Positions 4,488-37,091 of a stretch of 64,000 bases of DNA are shown piece after piece. Within the stretch, counting starts at the first letter, position 1. Every line of letters starts with the position of its first letter. This DNA comes from Colletotrichum lupini (Eukaryota; Ascomycota; Sordariomycetes; Glomerellales; Glomerellaceae): NCBI RefSeq assembly GCF_023278565.1, contig NC_064675.1, positions 6,882,001-6,946,000 of the forward strand, read 5' to 3'. Made by a program: the position numbers and the translations under genes. The notes under the pieces are model-generated. The model was not told the origin of the DNA. It searched no databases and was given only the letters and a program-made list of their open reading frames with translations.

Positions 4488-4492
4488 CAAAG
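4488..4492. repeat. Left target-site duplication CAAAG
   Basis: CAAAG lies immediately outside the left Copia LTR. The same five bases recur at 12414-12418, immediately outside the TRIM that abuts the Copia on the right. It therefore flanks the whole 7921-bp composite, not the Copia alone: the bases after the right Copia LTR are TTATT. Confidence 0.8.
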
Positions 4493-4669
4493 TGTCACGA
4501 GTTATGGCACGCAGCAATGGGCATACGGAGTATAGTAAAAGTAGCTTAACTATCAAAGTAGAAATAGACAAAAGGAGAAGGTCTATATATACGATATCTA
4601 AGATAGACACGTGATTTAGTACGTAACGGGCACTTTATAAGGTGCGATTACTATCCCTATTACGTAACA
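4493..4669 (-). repeat. Copia 3' LTR (177 bp)
   Basis: Begins TGTCACGAG and ends TTACGTAACA (TG...CA on the plus strand). It aligns end-to-end with 11892-12068 at equal length. Differences are transitions of the RIP type, with this copy the less damaged. The adjacent minus-strand purine tract TAGGGGGTG is the expected polypurine tract. Confidence 0.9.
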
Positions 4670-6489
4670 CACCCCCTAATTACTACCGCTAGGGAGCTAT
4701 TATACTTAAAATAGAATCTCTAAATACCCTTACAAAGGCCTAATTTAGTCGAATATAAACAAAGGAAAATTAAGTACAAGGGATACGCGTCTTTTAAGCT
4801 ACGTTTATTATAAATATATCCCTTTATCTAAAGTAAATAGAATCCTAACCCGGAATAGCGCGTATTTTACTATTTCCGGTATATAAATTACTAAGGGCGA
4901 GGCTACTTAGCTACCTTATATATATCTAAATTCTCGCGGCGTTACCTAGCTATTATTTTTTTTTTTTTTAACTTCTCGTAGTTATTATAAGTACCCCCGT
5001 TTATTACGCGCGCGCGCTTATACCGTCGAATCGTTTACTAATTTTATTTTAAATATAAATATCTAATATATTTAAAAATAATAATAAGTTTTATATAATT
5101 TTTATAATACTTTTTATATATATATTATATAGTTTACTAAGAGTTTAGATAAGTAATAATATTAACGAGCCCCTTTAGGTCGTTACCCCCCCCTACGACC
5201 TCTTATTTACTTACTAAGGCCCAGCTACCGAGCTCTCCCTCCCTAGCTAAAAGGATATTAAGGTTACTAATTAAAATACCGAGGACTTTATTAAGTTCGA
5301 GGCTCTCTTTAGTAGCTATAATAAGGGTAATAATAAAGTAAATAGTAATAATAAGAGCTTTAACGGGCTTTTACTTATCCCCCCCTCGGAGTTTAAGAAT
5401 AAGGATAAGACTAGTTTAAATAATAAGCCTTTTAAGAAGGGTATATTATATACTTATTATTTTAAGAGTTTATATTTAATATTATTCTAGGGTTTAAAAA
5501 ACGCAAGGCTAGCTCTTTTTAAAAGGGTAGTAAAAAGTAAAAAAGAACGCTAAGAGGCTAAGGTACCCCCCGTAATAAGTATAGTTCTCTTTACTATTCT
5601 AGGCCTATTTAACGTATACTTAGTCCCTAAGAAGCTTAAGGGAGAGGATCCCGAGGAACGGGAGATTTAGTACCTACCCTATTTTAAAATAGCTTTTTAA
5701 TATACCGATACTAAGGATAGTAGTCGTTATTTTATAAAAAGTAGTAGCTAGTATACGCGCTATTTTAACGGCCGTTCGGCTAAAAGGTATATTAATATAC
5801 TAGTTATTTTACGGCTAATAGCCTAGGCCCTTATTAAGGCTATTATAAGTAGCGCTCCCTCTTTTATAAATATATTATCCTTTTCTATCGTTAAGAAGCG
5901 CACTTTTAATTATAGTTTTAGTAAAATATTACTAAGCTCCGTAGTATCGTCCGCTAAATATATAATAACTAGAGGATATATAAGAACTATATCGGCTTCT
6001 ATATAAAAGACTTTTTTAATACGCGCCCCCGGTCCTCTCTCGTACTTATTATAGTTATTTATAATTAACTTCTTATTACGCTACTTATTTTTATACCCTA
6101 GGTCGTTAACCTAACGGTCGTTTTAGCTCCCGCACCCCTCGCTACCCCCGCTACTCTTAGTTTTATAAACTTTAAAATATATAAAACGCATTTCTTAGCG
6201 CGCATATTAACCCTCCTCTTTAATAACGCTATACTCTTAGTAATTATATATTTCGTAAACTAAGAGTTTAAATAATAAGCATAAACCCGGGTCTTATTTT
6301 TATATACGTATGCCCTATAGGGTAAGGTTATTTTATTTATTTTAGGCCTCCGGGCCGCACTCTAAGTTCTGTTTATTGTCTATTTTTAAATATTAAGTTT
6401 TTCTAAACGTAGCCTAAATTAATTATTTTTAACTATTTTAGCTATTTATAATAGCTTCTCGCGTATTATAAAGGTTAAGAAGTATATAG
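4670..6489 (+). other. Extra region of the Copia with a decayed opposite-strand ORF
   Basis: About 1.8 kb between the end of pol (reading left) and the 3' LTR. On the plus strand, the frame starting at 5281 is open for 70 codons, and the same frame continues from about 5161 to 5990 with roughly ten stops, all TAA or TAG. That is fewer than such AT-rich DNA should give by chance. Lys/Asn-rich text such as FKKGILYTYYFKSL and LVPKKLKGEDPEERE reads like decayed protein. No family is recognised. It could be a captured or antisense ORF of the element, or a nested second repeat. Confidence 0.4.
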
Positions 6490-9400
6490 AAATATTCGAA
6501 CTTAGCTCGTAAAAGGTTTTTAATAAGTCTATTTACTAGTATATCTTTTATTAATATATAAGTAACTTCGAAGCTACTTCTAGCGTGCTCTTATCTTAGT
6601 TATATATTTTATATATTAATATAGTAAAGTCGAGTAGCTATTCTTTCTCCTTTCCCTATAATAAGTTAAATCGTTTACTAATTATCGTAGTTAACTAACT
6701 ATACTTCTCCTAAGTTAAGGGCAATGTTCTTAAAAAGGCGCTTTAGAGCTATAGTCTTTTTTATAGTTTTTTTAAAATAAAGAAGCTTAGCTTCGGTAGT
6801 TAACGTCGTAACCGTCGCTTAGTATACTAATTTTTATTAAATTAGGCCGCTAAAAAGGAACATTATATATCCCTAAGATAATCGTTATATTACCTCGTTA
6901 TTTACGAAGCTAGTATTTCTAACTAAAAGTAATAATTGCGCACTCGGTATACTACCGTAATAGAGCGTAAGATATCTCGTTATATAGAAATATCGGATAT
7001 AGTAATTAATTACTTTAATATAAGTTACGCTTAGGTTAGTTAGGAACCGTAATAATTACGAGTAAATAAAGGCGACGTTTAGTCTAATTATAATAGCTAT
7101 ATAAAGTATACTCCCGACCTTCTCTTAGTAGCTCTTTATTTCCTCCTTTATTACCTACCCCTCGTTTAGTTTAAACTCTTTTTAAAAAAGAGGGGTAGCT
7201 AGATATAGTAAATTTATAAGGTCGAAGCGCTTAGTAACTCGCTTAATATATACGTCGTAAATAAAATAAACTTTGCGAGTAGTACGGTCTTATAAAATCC
7301 GTACTCCGAAGAAGTAATTAATCGGTCTATTCTCTTTAAGGTTAATATATTTTTTTATACCGTTAACGATCCCCTAAGCTACCTTTTAGTCGTCTCGATA
7401 GTATAGAATAATAAAGTTATCGACGTAGAATATTAGTATTACTTTCCTATTTATAGTTTAGTAAATATAGATCTCCTCGTAGCTATATATTATATTTATA
7501 TTATAGAGTATAGAAATAAAAGTTTAAAACTAGAGAATTAGCGAGTCTTAGAGGCTATATAGAGCGCGTTAGAGTTTGCTTACTTTATTAGTAACCTTAT
7601 ATCCCTTTAGGAGTTTAATAATTACTAGCTTCTCGCTCTTAAGAGGCGCGTTAAGGAATGCGTTAATAGTATTATACTAGTTTATTTTAAGGTCGAATTA
7701 GGTAGCTATTACTATTATAAGCCTAAAGGCCTTTGTAGTAAGCGTCGAAGCGTACGTATTTTATAAGGGGTTAAGTAGTTATATATCCCCCCTTATATAT
7801 ATACGTACTTTTACCTCGCTAACCTCGTTATTAACGTCGTGCTTATAAATATATACCTACTTTAATAAAAATAAGATCCCTTATTTAGGATTACGGTCGA
7901 CCTCTTCCTATATACTAATATCCCTTAGCTTTTTTATTTCTACGTCTATAGTATCCCTAAGTAACTTTTATAGTTACGGTAGGAGATATTTAATATTACT
8001 AAACTTTTTTAGTAGGCTTTAGAAATTAACTTTAATAAGTCGTGGTTTCTAAACTCTTCCGGAGCGCTCTAGGTAGGTCCTATAAACTGCTCCTTTTACT
8101 ACTTAATAGAGTATTATATATCCTATATTACTTTCCTCTATAGCTTTTTACTAATTAAGTATAAAAATAGAGAAAAAGTAGTCCTAGAGATAGTTATAGT
8201 AATCGCTATCTCTTATATTTAAATATAAGAGCGTTACGAAGATATTACTATCGAAGCGTTATAAAAGTCTACGGGCCCGGTTTAAACGTCTAGGACCTAA
8301 CGGAGCTTTACTTAGTACTTAATAAGGTAGTTCTTATAAGCTCTGTTCTTATATAATAATAGAGGTTTATTATAAGGGTTCCTTACTAACGTCGACTTTA
8401 GCGTTAAGAATTATTTTTTCGTAATTAGTACCTCGTTTACCGCGTACTCTAGCGTTTTATTAAGAGCCGTTATAAATTAAAGGCTCGAGAACTTTTATAA
8501 TATATATAAGCGCTTATAAAGAGGACTATAGACTGTGCAGAGCCGTTTATAACCCGGTTATTATATCCCCTTTTTTACCCCTACCCCCGAGCTTACGTAA
8601 GGGGGTTATTTTAGGGGTTAGTAATAATAATAAGACTATATTAGCCTCTTTAGCCTTATTTACTATACCCTAGAGTACGTCTATCGGTTACTTAGCGTCC
8701 TAAATAGTTAAAAATCTAATAATAATACTATCCTCGATTATAGAGTTATCTTAAGTACTAGTATTTCTAAAGTCTAGATTTACTTCCCCGAGTACTTAAA
8801 TTAACTTATCGTTAGTATTAAAGAGTTCTTATATCTCTTAGATTACTAAATTTGCTTACTTGCCCACGATAGCTTATTCCTCGTATATAGGATTATAAAA
8901 GACTTCTTTATTAAACTTAATATTCCTTATAATAAATACTTACTTAAGCGCGGGCACCTAGACCCTATATAGGTTATACGTTTTTAGTATATATCTAACT
9001 AAGTATCCTATATACCCGCAAAGAAGTACTTTAAACTCCTTTTAACGTATGCCCCTCTTATAATCCTTATAAAAAGGGTATGCTTAGTAGCTATATACGT
9101 AGAGGCTACTAAGATATGGGGTAACCGGTTTAGAATCCCGCACTTAGTAACCCGTCTACTACTAGCGTTAATACCGTTTTTACTAATTAATTTCTATTAT
9201 AATAAGCGAATCTCCTTTATTAGCCTCCCGTAGGGTAATATTATAAATAAAGATTACTACTAGTACTATTTTGTCCTATAGATTCGTAAGGAGGTTTATA
9301 GAAAGGCGCATTTTATAAGCTTTAGTAATTACGAGTTAACCTACTCTTTTAGTATTACCTACGGGTTCCTTTATATATAAAGATAGAAGTTCTATTCTAA

Positions 9401-11875
9401 TTCTTAGCTCGTTATATTACGTCTTATATACGCGTCTAACGTTTATAGTTAGGAGAGCGGTCTTATTATTATTTTTAAAAAAGTAAATTAGAGTCCCTTT
9501 TTAACGACGAATCGCTACCTCGAGGCTCTATAGTGCGAAAAGCACTTCCTTTTCTATTTTTATCTTTAAAGGGAACCCCCTAAGCTACTTATTATATTCG
9601 TTAGAAGCTATAAGTATATATTATTATTTACTAAGAGATAGTTCGAAGTAGAAGAGATCTTAGTATATATAGTACTATAGCCGTAAGGCTTTTCTCGAGG
9701 GTAGTCCTCTTAAAATTACTATTTTAGCTTTAGATAATATATATACTTTATACTTAACTTATAATAGAGGTTTAATACGTATACCTCGAGTCTTATATAG
9801 TAATTAATAAAGAGTATTAAGTCCGAGATAACCTATTTTAAGGTACTAGAGGAGCGCGCTATTAGACCTTTTATAAGTACGTTAATATAAGTAACGGAAT
9901 TTTTTACGGCTAACTAGTAGTATAATACTAGCTAGGCTCTATAGGACACGCTTAAGGTTTGCGAAAAAAGGGTAGGATTAGAGGAGCTTATATTTAAAAA
10001 AGACTAGATTATTTTTTTAGATAAGCTACTTTTTAATAGTACTCTTATAAAGCGTTCCCTATTGCAAAGTATAATCTAGACCGTAGTATTAGAGTGCGCT
10101 TCTATTTAGTAAAGTCTTTAAGACTATGTTAATATAAAATCCCTTAATATAAGCGACGTTCTAGAGCTTTAGATTGTAGGTTCCCTTTTTCTTAAGTCCG
10201 TCTAAGACGCCTTTTATAATACGAGTACTACGTATAATAATAAGTAGTATAGTAGTTCCTAATTTAACGTAGTTTTTATTACTTAATAATACGTAACTCT
10301 CGGGTTTAAATAAGCTCTTATTATTAATTAGATATATTACTCTATAGCTATTTATTACTATGCTCTAAGAAAGGGGGTAAGCGCTACTTATAAGGGTACT
10401 AAAGATTACGTTTATTTCTAAGTCCTAACTCTTTATAAGTATAGCGACTACGTAGCCCTCGTCCTAGTTTACTAATAAGCTCGCTATAAGTTAATTAGAG
10501 GATCTTTTTAGAAACCTAGGTTTCTTAGGGGTTCTATCGTTCCTTAACTAACTAGCTTTTTTAAGCTTATTATAAAGTAATTTCTACTTACTTAATTTAA
10601 TAATAGCGAGGACTTCTTTTATATAGCTCTTTAGTATTCGTATTAGTAACTTACTAACGTTTCGGCCTATAAGTACCTATTCTAATTTTTAATACGCCGT
10701 AGGGCGCTATAAGTATACGTAATTATAAGGGTATATAACGTTACCCTTATTATTTACGTCGTTAACTAAGTTAGAGCGTTTAATAAAAATAAAATAAGCC
10801 CCTCCTTAACCTAAAGGTCGTTTAGTATATACGTCCTAGGTTACTAAGCTAAATATATACGTAATCTCCTCGAGGGTCCTTATATACGTTCCGAAGGCTA
10901 TTAATTCGCTAAAGGTCTTATATATACGTTAGCCCTATATAGGGTTAAGTCTAGACTTAACCATAACTAAGAAGTCGAGTACGGCGATCTCTTTATTAAT
11001 TTTTAAAATATCGTACGTTTTAGCTCGGAAGTAAGCGGATTATTACTCCTTATATTAATATTAGGGGTTAATTCCGGTCCTCGCTTTATTAAGGGCTTAT
11101 TAATATTCCTTTTAAACCGCATTCCTTACTACTAGTTCGGGGGGCGTAAATTCTTATTTTAAATATTTAACGATTCGCTATATACTAAACTTAGCGCCGT
11201 TTTTAGTAGCTTTTTAGAATGCGTATTTATATAGTATAGCGTTAACTAATTTTATTAATTACTAGGCGAGGACTTTAATATGCGTATTAATAGTATTACG
11301 TTCGTAAGCTATAAGTTGCTCGTATTTAGCGTCGAGCTCTTATTATTTTTAAATACTCTCGAGCGTATAGATCCTCTTTATAAGTATAATATAGGGATAG
11401 ATTTATTTACGTAAAGTAAGTAATATAGCTAGCTTTATAAAAAGAAACCCGGCTTAGTTTTATAAGTTACTCGTACTTAAGGAAGTCGAAAGGTTCGTAC
11501 TAGGAGTTATATTTAAAAGCTATTAATAGAGGATTTCTTAGTTTCTTTAGTCGTTCTCGAACGCCTTATAACGGGCCTAGTAAGCTCGTAGTTCTTTTTT
11601 ATTATAAGTCGCGACTAATTATCCGAATTCTAAGGGCGAAGTAAGCGCTATAAAGGGGTTAAGGAATGTATCAGAATCTAAAGCGTCTAGGTTAACGTAT
11701 TTCTAGACCCCGACGCCCTTACTTATAGTACGAAGTACGTTAAACTATTTAATTTAACTATCGTAGCTAGTTAGTTTAGCTTAAGCTAAAGTAAGTACGA
11801 GTAAGTCGGTTATTTTAAAAAGATCGTAAAAATCGTATTAATAAGTACGTTATCGTAGTATAGGGTCTTAACTAA

Positions 11876-11891
11876 GAGCTAGGCTTATAAC
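11876..11891 (-). other. Copia primer-binding site (tRNA-Met half-tRNA type)
   Basis: The plus strand reads GAGCTAGGCTTATAAC directly beside the right LTR. This is the RIP-mutated form of GAGCTGGGCTCATAAC seen in both TRIM copies. That sequence is the 3' side of the D-arm/anticodon arm of tRNA-Met (loop CTCATAA), ending at the base after the loop, nucleotide 39. Priming by a tRNA-Met half cut at this point is known for Drosophila copia. Confidence 0.75.
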
Positions 11892-12068
11892 TATTACGAG
11901 TTATAGTACGTAGTAATAGGTATACGGAGTATAATAAAAGTAGCTTAATTATTAAAATAGAAATAGATAAAAAGAGAAGGTCTATATATACGATATCTAA
12001 AATAGACACGTAATTTAGCACGTAACGGGCACTTTATAAGGTGCGATTACTATCCCTATTACGTAACA
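11892..12068 (-). repeat. Copia 5' LTR (177 bp)
   Basis: Same length and order as 4493-4669, beginning TATTACGAG (RIP form of TGTCACGAG) and ending TTACGTAACA. It carries more C-to-T and G-to-A changes than the other LTR. A single T separates it from the LTR of the TRIM. Confidence 0.9.
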
Positions 12069-12069
12069 T

Positions 12070-12413
12070 TATTATAAAAAGCGGGCCCACTCTATGTGGG
12101 CAGCATTAACCACATCTATATCTCGTAACATACCCCCCAGACGCCTAGAGCCGTTATCCGTGCAATGGGCGTCTATACTGCGCCTCAGCCCTGCAGATAG
12201 CAGCCTCAGCCCCATAGGTAGCAGACTAGTCAGAAAAACCTCTGCCCATACGGAGACTCGAACGGCCGCCTCTCGCTTTTGGGGTGCACGACCTGTAGAT
12301 AATACGGCACTTAACCATTGTGGCAATAGCGGATAGGAGCTGGGCTCATAACTGTCACGAAAAGCGGGCCCACTCTATGTGGGCAGCATTAACCACATCC
12401 ATATCTCGTGACA
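12070..12413 (-). mobile_element. TRIM: miniature LTR element, copy 1
   Basis: 344-bp non-coding element with two 61-bp LTRs (12070-12130 and 12353-12413) around a 222-bp internal part. Reading minus: LTR, PBS (complement of GAGCTGGGCTCATAAC, at 12337-12352), internal part, G-rich polypurine tract (complement of TACCCCCCAGAC at 12131-12142), LTR. LTR ends are TGTCAC...GTGACA. The right LTR and interior are nearly free of RIP, while the left LTR shows a few C/T and G/A changes where it meets the Copia. The interior has no coding potential. It shares its PBS with the Copia, so it is probably a non-autonomous partner. Confidence 0.85.
12250..12335 (-). other. tRNA-like (A-box/B-box) segment inside the TRIM
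   Basis: On the minus strand the interior has TGGTTAAGTG (A-box-like) and, some 55 nt later, GTTCGAGTC (B-box-like), spaced as in a tRNA gene. A short acceptor-like pairing TTGCC/GGCAG can be drawn, but the T-stem pairs poorly. It looks like a degenerate tRNA or pol III promoter, not a functional tRNA. The B-box is also intact in the RIP-mutated second copy. Confidence 0.4.
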
Positions 12414-12418
12414 CAAAG
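12414..12418. repeat. Right target-site duplication CAAAG
   Basis: Matches 4488-4492 and closes the composite of Copia plus TRIM as one insertion. Confidence 0.8.
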
Positions 12419-13962
12419 TGTCCGTTTCACACGCCCTCGACTCCTCGAGCTCCTCCCCCCCATAATCCATCCTCCTCCTCCCATCCCATCCCATCCCATC
12501 CCATCCAAACCCCCTTCGCAACCCCACATAGTTCGGCATAACCGTTGCTGTTCCATCCTCTGTTTCCTCAGACGGGAGAGAGCGTGGCGAAGCGAACTCC
12601 ACAGCGAATGCACTTCCAAAGCCAGAGATCCTAGATCCTGATCAGCTGGTCTTTTCGACACAGGTACCCGTGTCGCAGCATCTCGAGCTTCACATAGATC
12701 GGGATGGTTCTTGGCGTTGGACTGGTTGGAAATGCGCGGTTCGAGTGGGATACTCTGGCTGTTTCTGAGAAGGGGGGAATGCTCCAACGTCTGAGGACAT
12801 GAGCCTAGGAAAATACAGTTCTGCACTTTGAGCTAAGGTAGGTTAAAGTAATCGGGCGGAATCACATAATACCGCCCGGCCGAGTGGGATTCCTTACTTG
12901 ACCTAGTAGCACGCCTAACCAACAATCAACAAGATAGTGTACCGAACCCATAACCTCTTCTTCGAAAAGACACGAGGAGGGGAATCCAAGCCTCACTCCC
13001 ACCCACGCAAAGACAAGAACCAAAATATGATAAAATTGGCGATCATTTCTTCTCCCTCTGTACACGTGTGTCTCTCCACCGCTCTAGAGTCCATAATCCG
13101 GTCTGGTCTCTTCCTTAGAGTGCACGTATGTAATGCAAGCCCAGGTAGTCTGGGGTAGCTTGCCTCGCTTGACCAAAAAAAGTGAGACAACACTCCCCTT
13201 GCCGAAAGACCCCCCCCAATCCCAAGGCTGCATAGCGCATAGGAAAGAACTGAGAACCGCCTAAGAGAAATGAGCCTATCATACCGTCGGAGATTGAGGC
13301 TGAACGGCGCGCCCGGTGCCCTCTGGGGCCGGGCCCGCCGCCCTTTTTTCTTCACCCTTCAGCAGCTCAGCTGGTGGTCCATGGTCTCTGGACCATGGTC
13401 CTTACTCCCATGGGCCCAATGGTGAGGGAAATCCCTCAGACCTTTTCGGCCGTGATTCAGCCCCCCAATTCCCCCCTCACTGCGCTCCCACGGCTCCCTA
13501 CCTTACCCCTTCCCGTGGGAGCGGGCGTGGGACGCGGGAGGGTGAGTAAGCGTGAACGCGTGGGCGTGGGTTGAAGCAGACACAAGCGGAAGGGGAACAC
13601 GAACATGTAAGACGGATGGGACGATGGATGACTTCTAAAAAATTTCTTGTTGTGGATTTTAGAAAAACCCAAAAGTATATACACTAAAGAAAATTGGTGC
13701 GGAAACTAATCCGCTGGGTATCCCGTTGTGAATCGAATGCTGCGTTTTTCCCCTGTCTCTCCCAGTCTCCCATGAGTGCTGATGAAAATGTGTTCTCCAA
13801 TCCCATGCGCCTTGACTGGCTGATACAGTCGGCCGTCTCCCCCATTGAAGTGAAATGTCTTGTACCCCGATGCAGTCTGTTGACCTGTCCAATGTCCAAC
13901 ATGGAAAGTAGAAAGAGAAGAGAAAATGCTCGTAAAAGTCGTCAAGCAGGCCGTAAATCTCT
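12419..13962. other. Intergenic with a short CATCC repeat
   Basis: About 1.5 kb of normal composition. It holds a short tandem CATCC array near 12480-12510 and no gene that I can support. Confidence 0.45.
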
Positions 13963-36672: not shown

Positions 36673-37091
36673 TGTCACGAGATATGGATGTGGTTAATAC
36701 TACCCACATTGAGTGGGCCCGCTTTTTGTGACAGCTGGGCTCATAACTGTCACAAAAAGCGGGCCCACTCCATGTGGGCAGCATTAACCACATCCATATC
36801 TCATGACATACCCCCCAGACGCCTAGAGCCGTTATCCGTATAATAGGCGTCTATACTACGCTTTAGCCCTATAGATAGTAGCCTTAGCCCCATAGGTAAT
36901 AAATTAGTTAGAAAAACCTCTACCTATACGGAGACTCGAACGGCCGCCTCTCGTTTTTTAGGTATACGACCTATAGATAATGCGGTACTTAACCATTATA
37001 GTAATAGCGGATAGGAGCTGGGCTCATAACTGTCACAAAAAGCGGGCCCACTCAATGTGGGCAGCATTAACCACATCCATATCTCGTGACA
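36673..37091 (-). mobile_element. TRIM copy 2 with an extra inverted LTR
   Basis: 419-bp composite flanked by the duplication CAACA (36668-36672 and 37092-37096). Order on the plus strand: inverted 61-bp LTR (36673-36733), 14 bp GCTGGGCTCATAAC (36734-36747), direct LTR (36748-36808), 222-bp interior (36809-37030), direct LTR (37031-37091). LTR and interior lengths equal those of copy 1. The interior is RIP-mutated but still has the B-box-like GACTCGAAC and the PBS. The interior has no coding capacity. The extra LTR in opposite orientation gives the insertion long terminal inverted repeats, which could be mistaken for a DNA transposon. Confidence 0.9.

What the first reader, a model, noticed from the sequence alone, without database searches (positions are those of the whole stretch)
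4488..12418. Copia and TRIM joined head-to-tail and inserted as one unit
A 7.6-kb Copia and a 344-bp TRIM lie in the same orientation, separated by a single base. Neither has its own target duplication, yet CAAAG flanks the pair exactly. Independent insertion would leave a duplication around each. The simplest reading is that both RNAs were packaged in one particle and their cDNAs were joined (LTR to LTR) before integration. This would be direct physical evidence that this Copia family mobilises the TRIM.
Basis: partly seen in the sequence, partly recalled or inferred. Interest (0 to 1): 0.8.

Follow-up and report, generated by a model that had tools for sequence, protein, structure and literature searches.

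The report
Helper and parasite retrotransposon inserted together
In this fungal genome a large jumping element and a tiny dependent one were joined end to end and inserted into the chromosome as a single piece, and many similar joints elsewhere in the genome suggest that the two are copied together.

Summary
A 7,576-bp RIP-degraded LTR retrotransposon (4493-12068; LTRs 177 bp) and a 344-bp TRIM (12070-12413; LTRs 61 bp) lie in one orientation, one base apart (12069); CAAAG flanks only the pair. They share primer site, polypurine side and LTR tips, not LTR bodies.

The case is not isolated. In the host genome (probably Colletotrichum), 19 of 38 TRIM insertions read are fused to Copia or another TRIM, or carry a Copia LTR. 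Of 22 composite, hybrid or aberrant units with both ends read, 19 have one exact 5-bp duplication; non-partner flanks match in 8 of 1490. LTR swaps at LTR borders number 16 + 16 at the primer-site side; none was seen at the polypurine side, where 27 near-matches went unlisted. This asymmetry fits plus-strand DNA jumping between the two templates through their shared primer site. The window is a rarer form: two finished cDNAs joined LTR to LTR (3 found). One-unit insertion is very likely; co-packaging is likely, not proven.

The parts
4488..4492 (.). left copy of target-site duplication CAAAG
   Evidence: sequence
4493..4669 (-). Copia 3' LTR (sense is minus strand)
   Evidence: other copies
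4670..4679 (-). polypurine-tract side of Copia (sense strand ends GGGGGTG next to the LTR)
   Evidence: sequence; named PPT from position and composition
4670..11891 (-). Copia internal region, heavily RIP-degraded (GC 0.316, (CA+TG)/(AC+GT) 0.08)
   Evidence: no relevant domain found in short open pieces
11876..11891 (-). Copia primer-binding block; less RIP-altered copies read GAGCTGGGCTCATAAC, whose complement holds GTTATGAGCCC
   Evidence: match to the anticodon arm of initiator tRNA-Met is recalled, not tested on a host tRNA
11892..12068 (-). Copia 5' LTR
12069..12069 (.). single base T between the two elements
12070..12130 (-). TRIM 3' LTR (61 bp), transition-mutated mainly at the junction end
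12131..12352 (-). TRIM internal region, 222 bp, no tRNA call and no Rfam match
12337..12352 (-). TRIM primer-binding block GAGCTGGGCTCATAAC, same as in less RIP-altered Copia copies
12353..12413 (-). TRIM 5' LTR (61 bp)
12414..12418 (.). right copy of target-site duplication CAAAG
36673..37091 (-). second, aberrant copy of the same TRIM family in the window: inverted LTR 36673-36733, 14-bp primer-site piece 36734-36747, then TRIM 36748-37091; whole unit flanked by CAACA

Best explanation
The pair is one integration product. A finished TRIM cDNA and a finished Copia cDNA were joined end to end (TRIM U5 end to Copia U3 end, one base added or left over), and the joined molecule was inserted, duplicating CAAAG once. 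The TRIM appears to be a non-autonomous partner of this Copia family: both carry the same primer site, the same polypurine-side sequence and the same 8-base LTR tips. Across the genome the two exchange LTRs, and the exchanges found at LTR borders are all at the primer-site end. I read this as plus-strand strong-stop DNA (LTR plus primer site) of one element annealing to the primer site of the other element's minus strand, which gives hybrids with one LTR of each kind and, if an extended plus strand jumps, shared-LTR concatemers. Shown: anatomy, the single duplication, composites and hybrids with single duplications, the one-sided swaps. Inferred: that the jump happens in a shared particle during reverse transcription, that Copia proteins supply the enzymes, and that the LTR:LTR joint is made by end joining.
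For: One CAAAG pair around both, none around either. Chance match of two flanks 8 of 1490. 19 of 22 composite, hybrid or aberrant units have an exact single 5-bp duplication, 2 differ by one transition, 1 fails; controls: ordinary Copia 22 of 25 exact among pairs under 9.5 kb apart, single TRIMs 13 of 15. LTR:LTR joints: window (gap 1), C10:2543484 (gap 0), C5:752102 (gap 0) (reversed controls 0). Primer-site side: 16 TRIM-interior-to-Copia-LTR and 16 Copia-interior-to-TRIM-LTR junctions, reversed controls 0. Polypurine side: 0 TRIM-LTR-to-Copia at up to 1 mismatch, no exact Copia-LTR-to-TRIM row listed. If swaps followed shared length (24 against 16 bp), 0 of 32 has probability 8e-8 and 0 of 23 insertions 8e-6. 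Five composites of one architecture carry TRIM interiors of three length classes, so there were several origins.
Against: Joining in the nucleus needs no shared particle. A crossover between a one-LTR circle and an element at the 24-bp primer-site/tip block would give the same shared-LTR composites. The LTR:LTR joints are only 3, and L024's far end is unread. One composite (L042+L133) has no matching duplication (CATGC/GCTTC). Not every joint is at the primer site: L022 switches from TRIM to Copia 14 bp inside the polypurine end, and L135, L028 and L026/L148 join interiors irregularly. One search listed 100 of its 127 one-mismatch rows, and a Copia LTR with an un-RIPped end would be among these. 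Five of the 22 pairs of ends lie more than 10 kb apart, and most Copia middles were not read. No coding domain confirms Copia. The real helper could be a related Copia not sampled.
Confidence: 0.72

Rival explanations
1. Nuclear recombination: Copia and TRIM cDNAs or one-LTR circles recombine by homologous recombination or single-strand annealing at the shared 24-bp primer-site/LTR-tip block, before or after integration, and the window's joint is a separate ligation event.
For: The block is shared. Inserting a one-LTR Copia circle at the primer-site/LTR border of a TRIM gives TLTR-TRIM-CLTR-Copia-TLTR with the old duplication, as in L035+L130, L038+L131, L142+L164, L036+L157, L147+L158. A review links integrase-independent, Rad52-mediated events to tandem insertions (PMC12786077, passages).
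Against: The 16-bp polypurine-side block was not seen used. Single hybrids with one LTR of each kind and an exact duplication (L013, L016, L153/L154, L156/L155) need a swap before integration, or a composite later trimmed.
Confidence: 0.2
2. Two independent insertions side by side, one within the target duplication of the other, followed by loss of bases.
For: Adjacent insertions occur in repeats; one composite in the genome shows no common duplication (L042+L133).
Against: Flanks do not fit: Copia CAAAG/TTATT, TRIM AACAT/CAAAG, and transitions alone cannot turn one into the other; the loss would have to end at the LTR tips, here and at L024 and L032.
Confidence: 0.03
3. Assembly artefact or chance.
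For: Repeats can be misassembled; no reads were available.
Against: A misjoin would not create a matching CAAAG at the flanks; LTR:LTR joints recur, one of them with another TRIM length variant (L024).
Confidence: 0.02

Closest known systems
Template-switching complexes of Triticeae, rice and maize (Sabot and Schulman 2007, PMC1950507; abstract and main section read)
   Same: Two elements in one insertion with one target duplication; origin assigned to intermolecular jumps during reverse transcription.
   Different: There three similar LTRs of one family, one shared, with the jump proposed at R. Here two elements with unrelated LTR bodies, swaps at the primer site, and in the window four LTRs with an LTR:LTR joint.
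Tandemly arrayed TRIMs and tandem LTR retrotransposons of plants (PMC4717578, passages and section 8; PMC11899658, abstract, sections 8, 10, 13)
   Same: Arrays with shared LTRs, some with one duplication; TRIM arrays like L037; one maize array holds inverted TRIMs.
   Different: The rice pipeline looks for highly similar repeats, so mixed arrays would escape it; the rice paper leaves the mechanism open. Here helper-like element and TRIM alternate.
SMART (FRetro129) and FRetro64 of Oryza brachyantha (PMC3281118, passages)
   Same: TRIM and putative Copia partner share primer site, polypurine tract and a short LTR motif, not LTR bodies.
   Different: In the passages read the partnership rests on sequence similarity; here there are physical hybrids and fusions.
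Fungal Helenus TRIMs (PMC10886601, abstract, Results part 1 of 2, Discussion and passages)
   Same: Fungal TRIM, 5-bp duplication, primer site of the tRNA-iMet anticodon-loop type, Copia helper suspected.
   Different: No tRNA-like sequence found in these 61-bp LTRs; the fungi named there are rusts and Agaricomycetes, this host is an ascomycete.
Onsen recombination during bursts (PMC5668417, passages) and LTR swapping in soybean (Du et al. 2010, title only in a reference list; not held)
   Same: Onsen: recombinants attributed to co-packaged RNAs. [quoted passage not shown]
   Different: Onsen exchanges are within one family, LTR exchanges mostly at the first jump. The soybean mechanism was not seen.

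Membership tests
TRIM | short (under about 1 kb), two short direct LTRs, no coding capacity | tested here: met
   344 bp, LTRs 61 bp, internal 222 bp; the stop-free stretches lying mostly inside it are 89 and 100 aa and run into LTR sequence
TRIM | primer site and polypurine tract inside the LTRs | tested here: met
   both blocks next to the LTRs in the window and other copies; the names rest on position and composition
TRIM | dispersed copies with 5-bp duplications | tested here: met
   54 matches in the genome, 40 of 73 candidates scored; 13 of 15 single copies with exact duplication
Copia superfamily | pol order with integrase before reverse transcriptase; Copia RT profile | tested here: inconclusive
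   no relevant Pfam match, no PDB or protein-database match for short open pieces; RNase H-like and RT-like motifs near the 3' end seen by eye only
Copia superfamily | 5-bp target duplication | tested here: met
   22 of 25 ordinary copies exact; not exclusive to Copia
Copia superfamily | half-tRNA (anticodon-arm) primer site, in plants reported only from Copia lineages | tested here: inconclusive
   GTTATGAGCCC next to the 5' LTR; its match to tRNA-iMet is recalled, no host tRNA was compared; rule from PMC10886601 (passages)
Template-switching complex (Sabot and Schulman) | one target duplication around the complex | tested here: met
   CAAAG
Template-switching complex (Sabot and Schulman) | internal LTR shared and outer LTRs highly similar | tested here: not met
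   window has two internal LTRs and outer LTRs of different families; L035-type composites elsewhere have a shared LTR and outer LTRs both of TRIM type
[quoted passage not shown]
   ARAGORN 0 genes in the window and in 9 TRIM loci; Rfam no match in 12060-12420 at E up to 1

The most novel reading that the evidence does not exclude
A miniature element and its helper share a reverse-transcription compartment so closely that the second strand jump goes astray between them, nearly always through the common primer site. This yields LTR-swapped offspring in both directions, alternating concatemers and end-to-end fusions, and makes the LTR next to the primer site a diagnostic that identifies the helper of a non-autonomous element from sequence alone.
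Probability: 0.55. Interest if true: 0.72.

Novelty: new variant of a known kind. Interest (0 to 1): 0.6.

Why it matters
Which autonomous element moves a given TRIM is usually argued from short similarities, as the passages read on plant TRIMs and wheat non-autonomous elements say (PMC4717578; PMC3281118; PMC9744471). Here two unrelated LTRs act as natural labels, so the path of each strand can be read from genomic copies, and the one-sided swaps point to a specific step, plus-strand transfer at the primer site. The same test can be applied to any genome holding a TRIM and a candidate helper.

Tried and rejected
Independent neighbouring insertions: flanks do not match. Plus-strand reading of the elements: rejected from the primer-site and polypurine positions. 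tRNA-derived internal region (box-A/B-like motifs seen by eye): no support. Confirming Copia from coding pieces: failed. Two of the three hits (L125, L126) showed no LTR match and were dropped; the reversed control also gave 3 hits, so that pattern alone proves nothing. Dating by LTR divergence: not possible, all differences are transitions. Clustering TRIM interiors by transversions and gaps gave one group; only length classes separate them. A first try at reading Copia right ends failed from a too narrow expression (3 of 5 readable pairs exact) and was redone. Left end of the L024 composite and the right ends of L019 and L022: not found in the stretches fetched at the expected distance. L022 was later paired with L163, about 38 kb away, from orientation and an equal GATTC, a weaker pairing; L147+L158 (21 kb), L036+L157 (16 kb, holding an 8.6-kb insertion seen in L136), L162+L161 (15 kb) and L114+L160 (15 kb) are also long. 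L165 has no readable end, L159 was not paired, and L019, L024, L026 and L030 lack a read end; these are outside the 22.

Limits: one search's pattern fixes TATTACGT, whereas un-RIPped ends read TGTTACGT; one search covers ends in ACGTGACA or ACGTAACA, and a form missed by both is possible. One search listed 100 of 218 rows and 100 of 127. Head-to-head joints were not searched. Middles of most Copia copies were not read.
Full report
WHAT IS THERE. The window carries a 7,576-bp LTR retrotransposon at 4493-12068 and a 344-bp TRIM at 12070-12413, separated by one T at 12069. The Copia LTRs are 177 bp with 17 differences, the TRIM LTRs 61 bp with 6, all transitions. CAAAG stands at 4488-4492 and 12414-12418; neither element has its own duplication. 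The Copia interior is strongly RIP-degraded (GC 0.316, substrate index 0.08), and the TRIM LTR next to it carries most of its transitions near the joint, so LTR divergence dates nothing. Stop-free pieces gave no relevant Pfam match and no PDB or protein-database match; 'Copia' remains an inference from the primer-site type, the 5-bp duplication and motifs seen by eye in one relative.

ORIENTATION AND SHARED SIGNALS. Just inside the right LTR of each element lies GAGCTGGGCTCATAAC (altered in this Copia, intact in others). Its complement holds GTTATGAGCCC, which I recall as matching the anticodon arm of initiator tRNA-Met, a primer type reported for Ty5, Drosophila Copia and fungal Copia and Helenus elements (PMC10886601, passages). 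Inside the left LTRs stands a C-run, a polypurine tract on the other strand. Both elements therefore read on the minus strand, TRIM upstream of Copia. The LTR bodies are unrelated; the longest shared stretch is the 8-base tip TGTCACGA.

THE GENOME. The window lies in a 63.44-Mb genome in 12 contigs. A window protein matches an unnamed protein at 98% and then named Colletotrichum proteins, best C. cereale at 73%, so the host is probably a Colletotrichum. One search returned 54 TRIM matches (40 of 73 candidates scored, so a sample). I read all these places; they make 38 insertions: 37 fetched loci, two of which are ends of one composite, plus two in the window. Fifteen are ordinary singles (one with a 1.9-kb insertion), one lacks part of an LTR, two are truncated. 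Nineteen are fused to Copia or another TRIM or carry a Copia LTR: window 4.5-12.4 kb, L012/L045, L013, L016, L019, L022, L024, L026, L028, L030, L032, L035, L036, L037, L038, L040, L041, L042, L044. One more, window 36.7 kb, has an extra inverted LTR. By contrast, of 78 Copia ends taken from the best-scored matches, 39 of each side, none abutted another LTR in the same orientation; the right-end query contained a Copia LTR and so disfavours hybrids.

SINGLE DUPLICATIONS. In 22 composite, hybrid or aberrant units both outer ends could be read: 19 have an exact 5-bp duplication, 2 differ by one transition (L040; L162/L161), 1 does not match (L042+L133, CATGC/GCTTC). Five of these pairs lie more than 10 kb apart and were paired by orientation and position; for L022+L163 the equal GATTC itself drew attention. 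Examples in window orientation, T and C for TRIM and Copia LTRs: T-TRIM-C-Copia-T (L035+L130 ACTAC; L038+L131 CCAGT; L142+L164 TCTTA; L036+L157 TCTTC; L147+L158 AAATA), C-Copia-T-TRIM-C (L132+L041 GATTA), T-TRIM-C-Copia-T-TRIM-C (L044+L134 AACTC), a TRIM array (L037 AAATC), hybrid TRIM T-TRIM-C (L013 TGCTT; L016 TATAT), hybrid Copia C-Copia-T (L153/L154 TAATA; L156/L155 GGTTC). Controls: ordinary Copia 22 of 25 exact among pairs under 9.5 kb, 2 with one transition, 1 failure; six longer pairs gave five exact and one mismatch (that left end, L114, later fitted L160); chance 8 of 1490. Single TRIMs: 13 of 15 exact.

ONE-SIDED SWAPS. RIP-tolerant patterns across the genome found 16 exact junctions of TRIM interior to Copia LTR and 16 of Copia interior to TRIM LTR at the primer-site side, none in the reversed controls. 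By position these fall in about 23 insertions (my grouping). At the polypurine side, TRIM LTR to Copia gave 0 at up to one mismatch. Copia LTR to TRIM listed no exact row; of its 127 one-mismatch rows 100 were listed, and these are ordinary Copia ends plus three AT-rich chance matches. The 27 unlisted rows could hide a swap with an un-RIPped Copia end. In one search the 100 listed of 218 polypurine-side sites were self-consistent, counting L022, whose TRIM-type flank runs into Copia further in. The shared block is 24 bp on one side and 16 bp on the other; if swaps followed shared length, 0 of 32 has probability 8e-8 and 0 of 23 insertions 8e-6. L022 switches from TRIM to Copia 14 bp inside the polypurine end, which looks like ordinary copy choice; L135, L028 and L026/L148 show other irregular interior joints.

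LTR:LTR JOINTS. Patterns for Copia LTR to any LTR and TRIM LTR to any LTR, same direction, gap 0 to 8, found three real sites: the window (gap 1), C10:2543484 (Copia to TRIM, gap 0; L024) and C5:752102 (TRIM to TRIM, gap 0; L032, flanked by TTTTA) (reversed controls 0). An earlier, looser pattern gave the window and two hits without LTR match, against 3 in its control. The far end of L024 is unread. The window's arrangement is therefore real and recurrent but rarer than shared-LTR forms.

INDEPENDENCE. TRIM interiors come in lengths near 201, 223, 250 and 274 bp. Composites and hybrids hold three of these classes (222-225, 249-253, 273-275), and the five T-TRIM-C-Copia-T composites alone hold three. 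They are thus not all copies of one master, although L035 and L036 could be related.

MECHANISM. From the textbook scheme of reverse transcription (recalled), plus-strand strong-stop DNA carries an LTR and the primer site and then anneals to the primer site at the end of the minus strand. If that minus strand belongs to the other element, the product has the donor's LTR at the primer-site end and its own LTR at the polypurine end, as found in both directions. If the donor plus strand was longer, the product is a shared-LTR concatemer. The second window copy at 36673-37091 fits faulty handling of this intermediate: its 3' LTR runs on into 14 bp of primer site and then an inverted LTR, all within CAACA. 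The LTR:LTR joints are best read as end joining of finished cDNAs before integration; the T could be one added base, or a polypurine-side base changed by RIP (speculation). Nuclear recombination at the same 24-bp block remains the main rival.

COMPARISON. Complex insertions with one duplication, assigned to template switching, are known from grasses (PMC1950507, main section). Tandem LTR elements and TRIM arrays are common in plants (PMC11899658, sections; PMC4717578, passages and one section; PMC7215508, passages); the rice paper leaves the mechanism open and its pipeline seeks highly similar repeats, so mixed arrays would escape it. TRIM or other non-autonomous partnerships have been argued from shared primer site, polypurine tract or LTR tips (PMC3281118; PMC10886601; wheat, PMC9744471; passages or sections). 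Onsen shows frequent recombination within one family (PMC5668417, passages). Autonomous/non-autonomous LTR swapping in soybean is known to me only by title (paper not held), so overlap with it cannot be judged. My searches on plus-strand transfer, non-identical LTRs, co-packaging and Colletotrichum TRIMs listed no paper that, from title and start of abstract, describes a one-sided Copia/TRIM exchange; most listed papers were not opened, lists were cut at 12 to 20, and most subscription papers are missing from the library.

VERDICT. Observation confirmed; one-unit insertion very likely; co-packaging likely because of the genome-wide one-sided swaps, not because of this locus alone. A new variant of a known kind.

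Noticed in passing
window 36673-37091: Second copy of the same TRIM family with an inverted LTR and a 14-bp primer-site piece at one end, whole unit flanked by CAACA: probably an aberrant reverse-transcription product.
   Followed up: partly
L160 (C3:7570000-7570200): A TRIM LTR at the end of a Copia copy is a short fold-back (start of the LTR followed by its own inverted start); with L114, about 15 kb away, it shares CATTC.
   Followed up: partly
L135 (C1:6973300-6979200): A TRIM LTR cut at its 24th base runs straight into the Copia interior, within one CCTTC duplication; the two matches overlap by 12 bases at the joint.
   Followed up: partly
L030, L043 and L165: Similar non-LTR sequence (AAAGGGAACT...) lies beside broken TRIM ends at all three places, possibly another repeat that inserts there or recombines with them.
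   Followed up: no
window 12131-12352 and other TRIM interiors: Interior lengths fall near 201, 223, 250 and 274 bp, as if a short unit varies in number; a 21-bp offset repeat is visible.
   Followed up: partly
L153 (C2:5883780-5884300): Copia left end with the last part of the LTR and the polypurine-side sequence repeated 173 bp further in.
   Followed up: no
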